A stretch of 64,000 bases of DNA. Origin: Alphaproteobacteria bacterium (GTDB taxonomy: Bacteria; Pseudomonadota; Alphaproteobacteria; RF32; CAG-239). Positions 42,446 through 52,319 of the stretch are shown piece after piece. A model generated the notes under the pieces. The model searched no databases. It saw only the letters and a program-made list of their open reading frames with translations, and was not told the origin of the DNA. The stretch is from NCBI GenBank assembly GCA_015062285.1, contig SUUY01000003.1:1-64000 (forward strand), read 5' to 3'. Each line of letters begins with the position of its first letter. Position 1 is the first letter of the stretch. The translations under genes were made by a program, and so were the position numbers.

Positions 42446-42694
42446 TACTTAACCTTTCATCAAAAAGGGGGACTTTCCTGTTGCTGGGCAAGTCCCGATA
42501 GCCCCACTTTAAGCTAACCAAAGCCCAAAGAATTTGAATTTGTTGCGACTACAATTAAGCAGCCATTGCAACTGGTGCTACGTTATTATCGTTAGCATTC
42601 ATTTTAATTTGAACCGATAACGGTGGTATCTCACCGAACACAGCATTCCCATCTTTACTGATACCTGTCAATCCTATGTCACCCCCGTAAAGTT

Positions 42695-42737
42695 ATTAGT
42701 CATTAGTCATTAGTGATTAGTGATTAGTGATTAGATT
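42695..42737. repeat. Heptad repeat, coding-piece side of the tmRNA spacer
   Basis: Five to six tandem copies of ATTAGTS (plus-strand reading ATTAGTC / ATTAGTG). They are the reverse complement of the tandem heptads at 43095-43125. In the spacer RNA the two blocks can pair into a long stem continuing from the tmRNA acceptor stem. The stop codon of the spacer ORF lies inside this block. Confidence 0.8.
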
Positions 42738-43074
42738 TGTTTAATAGACCTGATAACATTTTTAATATTTCTTCAATCTCAGCATCAATAATATTATAAT
42801 TATCAGAATCTAAATATTTCAAATCTTTTGATAATAATATTTGATATCTTAGTTCAGCGGCAGAACCTCTGGCGATAGTAACAAAATGCCTAAATTCAGA
42901 GATTCCTTTACGAGCAGCCCCTTCAACAAGGTTTGAATTTATTGATATAGCTGCACGCCGTATTTGTGATATCAAACCATAAACTTCATCTTTGGGAAAC
43001 ATTGATGTTAACTCATAAAGTTTAAGCGTTAATAAATGAGCTTTTTTATAAACTTTTAAATTAGTAACTACCAA
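42724..43074 (-). CDS. Four-helix-bundle 'intervening sequence protein' (S23 family) inside the tmRNA spacer
   Basis: 116 residues of the family whose members are encoded in 23S rRNA intervening sequences: VTNLKVYKKAHLLTLKLYEL, FPKDEVYGLISQIRRAAISI, NSNLVEGAARKG and FVTIARGSAAELRYQIL are its hallmarks. The TTG start has AGAGGGG upstream at good spacing. The gene fills the spacer between the two mature pieces of the tmRNA, on the same strand, and is bracketed by complementary heptad repeats. Its role is unknown, as for the family. The site is analogous to the excised RNA segments in rRNA where relatives occur. Confidence 0.88.
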   Translation of the reverse strand: MVVTNLKVYKKAHLLTLKLYELTSMFPKDEVYGLISQIRRAAISINSNLVEGAARKGISEFRHFVTIARGSAAELRYQILLSKDLKYLDSDNYNIIDAEIEEILKMLSGLLNKSNH

Positions 43075-43094
43075 TTAACATCCCCTCTAATACC

Positions 43095-43125
43095 TAATGA
43101 CTAATGACTAATGACTAATGACTAA
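43095..43125. repeat. Heptad repeat, acceptor-piece side of the tmRNA spacer
   Basis: Four tandem copies of TAATGAC (plus strand), directly after the tmRNA CCA end (43127). Complementary to the block at 42695-42737. Confidence 0.8.
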
Positions 43126-43214
43126 TTGGTGGAGGTGCCGGGTACTGCCCCCGGGTCCAAATATCCTATTCCACAGAGCCTCTAGTGTTATATCCGGATT
43201 GCTCCGGCCAAAAT

Positions 43215-46529: not shown

Positions 46530-46840
46530 AAAAGCATGAGGACCTCACAGCCGTCATGCTTTTGAATAATGTCAAACGTAGCAAAAGAAATCCGCAGGAA
46601 AAGCGGTAATCTGTTAACAGAACAACACCAAAGGCGAACGCCGGTGACTGTTTTAGTTAGTGTTAGTGTTAGTGTAGTTAGATAGGTGTTGTTCTGTTGT
46701 ATTAAGAAAGCAGGGAAGTGATTGATTGCCGGTTTATTCACTCTATAAAAAATGTGATTCAACCCCAACCCTGCTTATATATCTATATCTAAATAATCAT
46801 CTTGTAGCAATACATATATCTTATTTGACAAATTTTGTCA
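46530..46840 (-). ncRNA. Candidate structured RNA or leader with its own terminator
   Basis: On the minus strand, a TTG-N20-TATATGTA promoter-like site lies near 46840-46810. Further on is a perfect 14-bp stem AACAGAACAACACC / GGTGTTGTTCTGTT (arms 46685-46698 and 46616-46629) around ACTAAC hexamer repeats and a small hairpin. The stretch ends in a hairpin with AAAGCATGA arms and a T-run (46563-46530). The last element is a convincing terminator. No matching gene lies between promoter and terminator. The Thr/Leu-codon-like repeats recall an attenuator leader peptide, but no good start or stop supports that. Confidence 0.45.
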
Positions 46841-52234: not shown

Positions 52235-52319
52235 GCGTTGACTTGTCATACGCCTAATGACTAATAACTGTCATCCCAGGCCCTTTCTTTCCCTGTCATC
52301 CCGAGCTCCTTTCTTTCCC

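What the first reader, a model, noticed from the sequence alone, without database searches (positions are those of the whole stretch)
42452..43208. A four-helix-bundle 'intervening sequence protein' gene inside the excised spacer of a split tmRNA
Seen: the minus strand shows a tmRNA acceptor piece ending in CCA (43127) and a coding piece beginning GGGGGTG (42686). Between them is a 440-nt spacer with a 116-codon S23-family ORF in the same direction (TTG start with AGAGGGG). The ORF is bracketed by heptads ATTAGTC and GACTAAT that can pair and extend the acceptor stem. Known: S23-family genes are found in intervening sequences of 23S rRNA, excised to leave fragmented rRNA; alphaproteobacterial tmRNA is permuted and loses a spacer during maturation. 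Inference: the same protein family has colonised a second kind of excised RNA segment, which suggests a general link to RNA insertions that are cut out without ligation, whether as a parasite or as a processing factor.
Basis: partly seen in the sequence, partly recalled or inferred. Interest (0 to 1): 0.95.

Follow-up and report, generated by a model that had tools for sequence, protein, structure and literature searches.

The report
Heptad-framed S23 gene inside tmRNA spacer
[quoted passage not shown] most sampled relatives of this gene have such a frame, and those tested mostly stand just behind ordinary genes, so it is likely a little-known mobile element.

Summary
The genome's single detected ssrA gene is permuted, and its 440-nt spacer (42687-43126, minus strand) encodes a 116-aa PF05635/TIGR02436 (S23) protein between inverted arrays of the heptad ATTAGTC. 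Folding predicts that the arms pair and keep the acceptor stem closed. Three congeners have 15-nt spacers; no other of 152 family genomes has a strong S23 gene. What they share is the frame: inverted 7-bp arrays (96 of 145 loci; 7 of 497 control ORFs), a heptad that differs between lineages, and a place just behind the stop of a co-directional ORF. The heptad is also dispersed without an ORF: 14 hits at 8 sites here, 0-3 hits in each of 34 congeners, 20-505 hits in 10 of 13 genomes with matching arms. Best reading: S23 genes are the coding members of a family of heptad-hairpin elements (REP/RAYT-like); one landed in a tmRNA spacer that tRNA-processing enzymes would remove. Mobility, excision and protein function are inferred.

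The parts
43127..43189 (-). tmRNA acceptor piece (T arm, CACCTCC acceptor strand, CCA at 43129-43127)
43087..43126 (-). upstream heptad array, ATTAGTC x4 + ATTAGG + TATTAG, starting at the base after CCA
43082..43088 (-). Shine-Dalgarno-like AGAGGGG at the inner edge of the array
42724..43074 (-). S23 / PF05635 / TIGR02436 ORF, 116 aa, TTG start; its TAA stop lies in the downstream array
42695..42734 (-). downstream heptad array (CTAATCA/CTAATGA units), inverted relative to the upstream array
42687..43126 (-). 440-nt spacer, predicted to be removed during tmRNA maturation (15 nt in three congeners)
42466..42686 (-). tmRNA coding piece (GGGGGTG acceptor strand onwards)
42555..42596 (-). tag reading frame ANDNNVAPVAMAA*
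52252..52265 (-). ORF-less ATTAGTCATTAGGC array elsewhere in the window (one of 8 dispersed sites in the genome)

Best explanation
The spacer of this single, otherwise intact permuted tmRNA gene holds an S23 gene framed by inverted 7-bp repeat arrays, likely a mobile heptad-hairpin element that would be transcribed with the tmRNA and removed with the spacer by tRNA-processing enzymes. Shown: the parts, the single copies, the 15-nt spacers of three congeners, the heptad frame of most sampled S23 genes, their sense placement behind ORFs, and the dispersal of the same heptad without an ORF in S23-bearing genomes. Predicted by folding: the arms pair and hold the two acceptor strands together, so that a 440-nt insert does not spoil the tRNA-like fold. 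Inferred: RNase P and 3' trimming cut it out as they do in other two-piece tmRNAs; the S23 protein is translated from the precursor, recognises its own heptad hairpin, and helps the element and ORF-less heptad arrays to spread, as RAYT proteins do for REP sequences. The step that copies or moves the element is not known; help from a reverse transcriptase is a guess, prompted by the fold that S23 shares with Avd of the reverse-transcriptase complex of diversity-generating retroelements.
For: Parts and folding: (acceptor-stem pair probability 0.984; arms shuffled mean 0.55, 3 of 40 as high; congeners' 15-nt spacers 0.96-0.99). New to this species: strong PF05635 in 1 of 152 family genomes; congeners' spacers. 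Frame: inverted-repeat score >=12 in 57 of 79 and 39 of 66 (35 of 61 without duplicates) S23 loci, versus 7 of 497 control ORFs of the first set and 1 of 790 mononucleotide shuffles; period 7 on either flank in 52 of 79 versus 42 of 497, no other period from 4 to 13 comparable. The heptad travels with the protein: mean heptad distance 3.4 at 30-50% identity, 2.2 at 60-70%, 1.8 at 70-80% (17 pairs), 0 at 100% (2 pairs). Placement: nearest upstream neighbour is a co-directional stop in 44 of 46 and 34 of 41 loci with an upstream array, within 40 nt in 39 and 26, versus 412 and 109 of 618 control ORFs; without asking for an array 137 of 155. Dispersal: 19 hits here (5 in the S23 arms, 14 at 8 other sites) versus 0 in 30 and 1-3 in 4 of 34 congeners; genomes with matching arms median 48 hits versus 0.5, p = 0.005; ORF-less hairpins and S23-bearing elements with the same arms in one genome. 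Fold: 2gsc and 2rld (S23), then Avd alone and in the DGR reverse-transcriptase complex (4dwl, 8ube, 8ub7; TM 0.74-0.80, E 0.016 and weaker).
Against: No movement was observed; empty sites are known only for the tmRNA. In this genome the dispersed arrays look one-armed by eye, not like hairpins, and the five stretches read in G903 are mostly long or one-sided arrays too. The variable positions of ORF-less hairpin arms hardly covary (43 of 1000 shuffles reach the observed pairing). 2 of 13 genomes chosen as matching had no dispersed hits and 1 had 3, while 6 of 14 non-matching ones had 3 or more. 20 of 145 S23 loci show neither an inverted repeat of score 12 nor a period-7 array of score 9. Control ORFs of the same genomes also favour period 7 over other periods (42 of 497), so heptads are not confined to S23 genes. 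No transposase, reverse transcriptase or target duplication was sought genome-wide or identified. Excision and expression are untested.
Confidence: 0.6

Rival explanations
1. A passive intervening sequence: the S23 element is an RNA-level parasite tolerated wherever a stable RNA has a removable loop; the heptads are only a slippage-prone way of keeping a stem for RNase III, with no part in mobility.
For: The four 23S copies lie in one loop, between E. coli positions 1150 and 1177; the Coxiella IVS has paired ends, heptameric repeats and RNase III cleavage (PMC4990558, passages); the arms restore acceptor-stem pairing in the model.
Against: 220 of 224 other loci matched neither 23S rRNA nor permuted tmRNA; the same heptad is dispersed without ORF in S23-bearing genomes; the protein is under purifying selection.
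Confidence: 0.25
2. Host repeats first: heptad arrays are spread in a genome by another mechanism, and S23 genes were captured by, or inserted into, pre-existing arrays.
For: In this genome 6 of 8 ORF-less sites sit at a TAG stop codon on the sense strand, and the S23 upstream array shares TTAGAGGGG with two of them; control ORFs also favour period 7; heptamer repeats were described in other genomes without mention of S23 (PMC4679880, passages).
Against: The 34 congeners, none with a strong S23 gene, have 0-3 scattered hits of this heptad pair; heptad sequence tracks S23 protein similarity.
Confidence: 0.2
3. Processing or regulatory factor: the S23 protein helps tmRNA maturation or trans-translation in this species.
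For: It lies within the tmRNA precursor and has an SD-like site.
Against: 55 of 58 sampled genomes, its own included, have alpha-type ssrA, while congeners have no strong S23 gene and only 20 of 385 genomes of the class have any PF05635 match.
Confidence: 0.05
4. Assembly artefact or misjoined contig.
For: The genome is a draft of 10 contigs.
Against: The protein cluster (90% identity) has 3 member sequences on 9 contigs, the longest 416,864 bases, while the window's contig is 268,572; arms, ORF and tmRNA halves join without disruption.
Confidence: 0.03

Closest known systems
23S rRNA intervening sequence of Coxiella burnetii (PMC4990558, passages read)
   Same: S23 ORF between paired ends; heptameric repeats upstream of the ORF; about 430-440 nt; insertion in a loop of a stable RNA
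   Different: 23S helix 45 and RNase III; here the loop of the tmRNA acceptor stem, where tRNA-processing enzymes would act; the passages I read mention the upstream heptads only
Permuted (two-piece) alphaproteobacterial tmRNA (PMC11915505, passages read)
   Same: gene order, Rfam models, tag, acceptor stem; that paper notes one intervening sequence with a tRNA-Ala gene and one with a repetitive element
   Different: a protein gene in the spacer; not mentioned in the passages read
rRNA insertions of CPR bacteria encoding 23S_rRNA_IVP (PMC11270868, one passage read)
   Same: same protein family in inserts of 16S and 23S genes
   Different: rRNA, not tmRNA; no heptad arms described in that passage
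REP sequences and their RAYT transposases (recalled)
   Same: a gene bracketed by the repeat that is also dispersed through the genome
   Different: the protein is a helix-bundle family, not a Y1 transposase; no mobilisation shown
Heptamer repeats: TAACTGA in Beggiatoaceae, cyanobacteria, Bacteroidetes (PMC4679880); 7-nt motifs of the Nostoc trnL P6b stem (PMC4476775) (passages read)
   Same: tandem 7-nt repeats, dispersed or paired in a stem; PMC4476775 says that their origins are not known
   Different: no S23 gene is linked to them in the passages read
Avd of diversity-generating retroelements (PMC10053308, passages read; 4dwl, 8ube, 8ub7)
   Same: same fold (TM 0.74-0.80); PF05635 and Avd held to be homologous in that paper
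   Different: window protein is below the curated cut-offs for Avd and bAvd; no retroelement seen beside it

Membership tests
Permuted two-piece tmRNA | acceptor piece upstream of coding piece, Rfam model over cut-off | tested here: met
   RF01849 145 bits, RF04321 93.3 bits
Permuted two-piece tmRNA | third acceptor pair G-U and intact tag frame | tested here: met
   CACCTCC/GGGGGTG; ANDNNVAPVAMAA*
Permuted two-piece tmRNA | partner protein SmpB in the genome | tested here: met
   one match, 172.7 bits
Permuted two-piece tmRNA | mature RNA in two pieces, spacer removed | not testable with these tools
   needs RNA
S23 / PF05635 / TIGR02436 protein | curated cut-offs | tested here: met
   126.7 over 33.8; 115.6 over 24
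S23 / PF05635 / TIGR02436 protein | four-helix-bundle fold of solved S23 proteins | tested here: met
   predicted model, pLDDT 95.7; 2gsc TM 0.90-0.93, 2rld TM 0.79-0.83
23S rRNA intervening sequence | located in 23S rRNA | tested here: not met
   lies in ssrA
23S rRNA intervening sequence | S23 ORF between complementary ends that form a stem | tested here: met
   predicted fold z -5.5, 20-bp arm helix
23S rRNA intervening sequence | excised without ligation | not testable with these tools
   needs RNA
REP/RAYT-type system | gene bracketed by repeats that are also dispersed without the gene | tested here: met
REP/RAYT-type system | Y1 (HUH) transposase gene | tested here: not met
   the ORF matches only PF05635 and, weakly, bAvd
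REP/RAYT-type system | mobilisation of the repeat by the protein | not testable with these tools
   needs an experiment
DGR Avd | curated cut-off of the Avd models | tested here: not met
   36.6 of 80 (NF033474), 28 of 40 (PF22296)
Group I intron in tmRNA | intron RNA family match | tested here: not met
   no intron family among the 5 gathering-level matches in the window

The most novel reading that the evidence does not exclude
S23 (four-helix-bundle) proteins drive a widespread, unrecognised class of mobile elements: hairpins built of tandem heptads, each lineage with its own heptad recognised by its own S23 protein, spreading in the sense direction to the 3' ends of genes, leaving ORF-less heptad arrays across genomes and now and then landing in 23S rRNA or, here, in tmRNA. 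This would explain orphan heptamer repeats of bacteria.
Probability: 0.4. Interest if true: 0.93.

Novelty: new variant of a known kind. Interest (0 to 1): 0.86.

Why it matters
S23 proteins are known best from 23S rRNA intervening sequences, and the papers seen here call their function unclear (PMC4990558, PMC11270868, passages). A copy in tmRNA shows that they are not tied to the ribosome. The frame found on most sampled S23 genes (inverted heptads, sense placement behind genes, dispersed ORF-less copies) gives the family a testable role, and gives dispersed heptamer repeats a candidate source. It also shows how a mobile element could live in a quality-control RNA: by entering a segment that the host already discards and bringing its own stem to keep the host fold.

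Tried and rejected
Rejected: (1) S23 belongs to excised RNAs as a rule: 4 of 224 other PF05635 loci in 23S, 0 in permuted tmRNA. The 224 include 25 weak matches and a few duplicates; rRNA was sought by blastn with 23S pieces, tmRNA by profiles of permuted ssrA. One-piece tmRNA was covered only by Rfam on 60 of the loci and ARAGORN on 110; neither found a tmRNA. The weak matches look like Avd: 6 of 6 tested score higher with the Avd model (49-61 bits, cut-off 80) than with TIGR02436, which two of them still pass. (2) The heptad as a fixed recognition word: it differs between elements. (3) Fully covarying hairpin arms: not shown; one search was run with a structure one column out of register, its slide -1 row is the right one. 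(4) The first control set lay too close to the S23 genes and was replaced.

Dropped rows: L146 (short flank); L246; viral loci L208-L210 left out, where L067 was misplaced (4 stops) and L071 has one stop; duplicates, 23S copies, weak matches and loci without an upstream array (46 of 84 and 41 of 80 kept). Matching and non-matching genomes were picked by eye; hits there are overlapping words, so one long array counts several times. In one search (146 genomes, 111 with TAGGCAG arrays) S23 status is known for 8 only: matching heptad 15-69 hits in 5, other heptad 0-4 in 3. dN/dS: 3 of 11 pairs saturated, 1 failed. Gene neighbours are ORFs of 100 codons or more, not curated genes. Promoter and terminator scan of the locus: nothing above chance.

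Literature: searches (open-licence PMC only) listed no report of an S23 gene in tmRNA or of a link between S23 genes and dispersed heptad arrays; I saw listings and passages of eight papers, no whole text.

Full report
WHAT IS THERE. On the minus strand the window holds a permuted alphaproteobacterial tmRNA gene (RF01849 145 bits, RF04321 93.3 bits). The acceptor piece ends in CCA at 43127, the coding piece starts GGGGGTG at 42686, and the tag reads ANDNNVAPVAMAA*. The 440-nt spacer holds a 116-codon ORF (42724-43074, TTG start, AGAGGGG seven bases before it). It is a clear S23 protein: PF05635 126.7 bits, TIGR02436 115.6 bits; in a 22-sequence alignment that includes it, 19 columns are invariant. 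The predicted structure is a bundle of four helices (pLDDT 95.7) that matches the solved S23 proteins 2gsc and 2rld (by sequence; by fold) and, more weakly, Avd of diversity-generating retroelements, alone and in the reverse-transcriptase complex (4dwl, 8ube, 8ub7). The ORF is bracketed by ATTAGTC arrays (43087-43126) and their inverse (42695-42734). The genome (1.416 Mb, 10 contigs, 100% complete) has one PF05635 match, one ssrA and one SmpB.

IT IS AN INSERT. ssrA was found in 55 of 58 genomes, its own included. Of 50 relatives' loci read for their spacer, 49 gave one; three congeners with near-identical junctions have 15 nt (L052, L055, L056), and the 49 run from 6 to 168 nt. In the family, 21 of 152 genomes have some PF05635 match; this one has 126.2 bits, the next 40.4, and four in all pass the Pfam cut-off. 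The weak ones look like Avd (6 of 6 tested). The protein's cluster has 3 member sequences on 9 contigs, which argues against an assembly artefact.

FOLDING. Stretch 42640-43189 folds at -150.3 kcal/mol (z -5.5); the arms form a 20-bp helix above the acceptor stem. The acceptor stem pairs with probability 0.984; with the spacer shuffled the mean is 0.57 (5 of 40 as high), with only the arms shuffled 0.55 (3 of 40); with congeners' 15-nt spacers it is 0.96-0.99. So the arms would offset the cost of the insert.

THE FRAME IS COMMON. An inverted repeat of score >=12 joins the two flanks in 57 of 79, versus 7 of 497 ORFs of the same loci whose flanks lie at least 600 nt away and 1 of 790 mononucleotide shuffles; period 7 appears on at least one flank in 52 of 79 (versus 42 of 497), and no other period from 4 to 13 is comparable. 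A second set, from Pseudomonadota, gave 39 of 66 (35 of 61 without duplicates). In 20 of the 145 neither sign was seen. The heptad differs between elements; 79 of 99 consensus heptads contain AG on the upstream arm; heptad similarity rises with protein similarity. Heptameric repeats in one such element were noted before, in Coxiella (PMC4990558).

WHERE S23 GENES SIT. Of 224 other PF05635 loci, four are in 23S rRNA (L006, L072, L267, L268), each between E. coli positions 1150 and 1177 (the loop that PMC4990558 calls helix 45, by position recalled), and none matches permuted tmRNA. Among loci with an upstream array, the nearest upstream feature is the stop codon of a co-directional ORF in 44 of 46 (Pseudomonadota) and 34 of 41 (many phyla), and that stop is within 40 nt in 39 and 26; for control ORFs the figures are 412 and 109 of 618; without asking for an array it is 137 of 155. 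The tmRNA copy fits this rule in its way: its array begins at the base after the CCA end of the acceptor piece.

DISPERSED HEPTADS. The word ATTAGTCATTAGTC (one mismatch allowed) has 19 hits in this genome, none in 30 of 34 congeners and 1, 1, 1 and 3 in the other four. Five hits lie in the S23 arms; the other 14 form eight sites without an S23 ORF. In six of the eight, a TAG stop of an open frame lies inside the array or 5 nt before it on the same strand; since 7 is not a multiple of 3, a TAG-bearing heptad array stops all three frames. In 27 other S23-bearing genomes the pattern TCAGCNNTCAGCNNTCAGC has a median of 48 hits where the S23 arms are of that type (13 genomes; 20-505 in ten, 3 in one, none in two) and 0.5 where they are not (14 genomes, six with 3 or more) (p = 0.005). 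In one of them (G894) I read 15 sites: two carry an S23 gene and 13 do not, among these seven hairpins about 90-130 nt long with 31-nt arms; of five stretches in a second genome (G903), one has a strong and one a weak S23 match, and the arrays there are mostly long or one-sided. Across eight G894 hairpins the TCAGC cores are nearly invariant and pair, while the two variable bases hardly covary, which points to a core word more than to selection for a perfect stem.

READING. The simplest account of the frame, the tracking of heptad by protein, and the dispersed copies is a two-part system: an S23 gene inside a heptad hairpin, and ORF-less heptad arrays that depend on it. That works like REP/RAYT but is not a member: the protein is no Y1 transposase. 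The mechanism of movement is unknown; the shared fold with Avd makes an RNA step conceivable. In tmRNA the element would be removed by the enzymes that make other two-piece tmRNAs (PMC11915505 speaks of tRNA processing enzymes, passage); this was not tested here.

STATUS OF CLAIMS. Shown here: anatomy, uniqueness at the sensitivity used, spacers of congeners, frame, placement, dispersal correlation. Predicted: folding effect, protein fold. Inferred: excision, translation, mobility, recognition. The novelty statement rests on nine literature searches in an open-licence library.

Noticed in passing
L042, L043, L060 (tmRNA loci of congeners G008, G026, G007): Their tmRNA spacers hold other repeat-like sequence, with the word CGCTTGTATAGCGC in the 166- and 168-nt spacers and a variant in the 47-nt one; the ssrA spacer may be a landing site for several kinds of element.
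   Followed up: partly
L287, L288, L289, L291, L292, L293 (own genome): ORF-less ATTAGTC arrays sit at TAG stop codons on the sense strand, several followed by a terminator-like hairpin by eye; L288 and L292 share a 47-nt stretch of array plus GGGGCTTGG hairpin (91% identical).
   Followed up: yes
window 46620-46700: A hairpin (ACAGAACAACACC / GGTGTTGTTCTGT) encloses a short array GTTAGTGTTAGTGTTAGTGT of period 6; not explained.
   Followed up: no
G402 (L071, L081, L083-L086, L275-L277): A 1.5-Mb alphaproteobacterial genome has 11 S23 matches; six compared have at most about 55% protein identity and the four with a clear array have different heptads.
   Followed up: partly
G919 C120:31478-31941: In one Pseudomonadota genus TAGGCAG arrays occur in 111 of 146 genomes; at this place they form an inverted pair about 400 nt apart, the size of an S23 element.
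   Followed up: partly
L007-L010, L087-L103: Weak PF05635 matches (20-40 bits) in the same family of genomes; six weak matches tested score best with the Avd model. A link to diversity-generating retroelements was not checked.
   Followed up: partly
L106, L107: A CRISPR repeat (CRISPR-DR7) lies about 1.3 kb behind the S23 gene in two Nitrospirae contigs.
   Followed up: no
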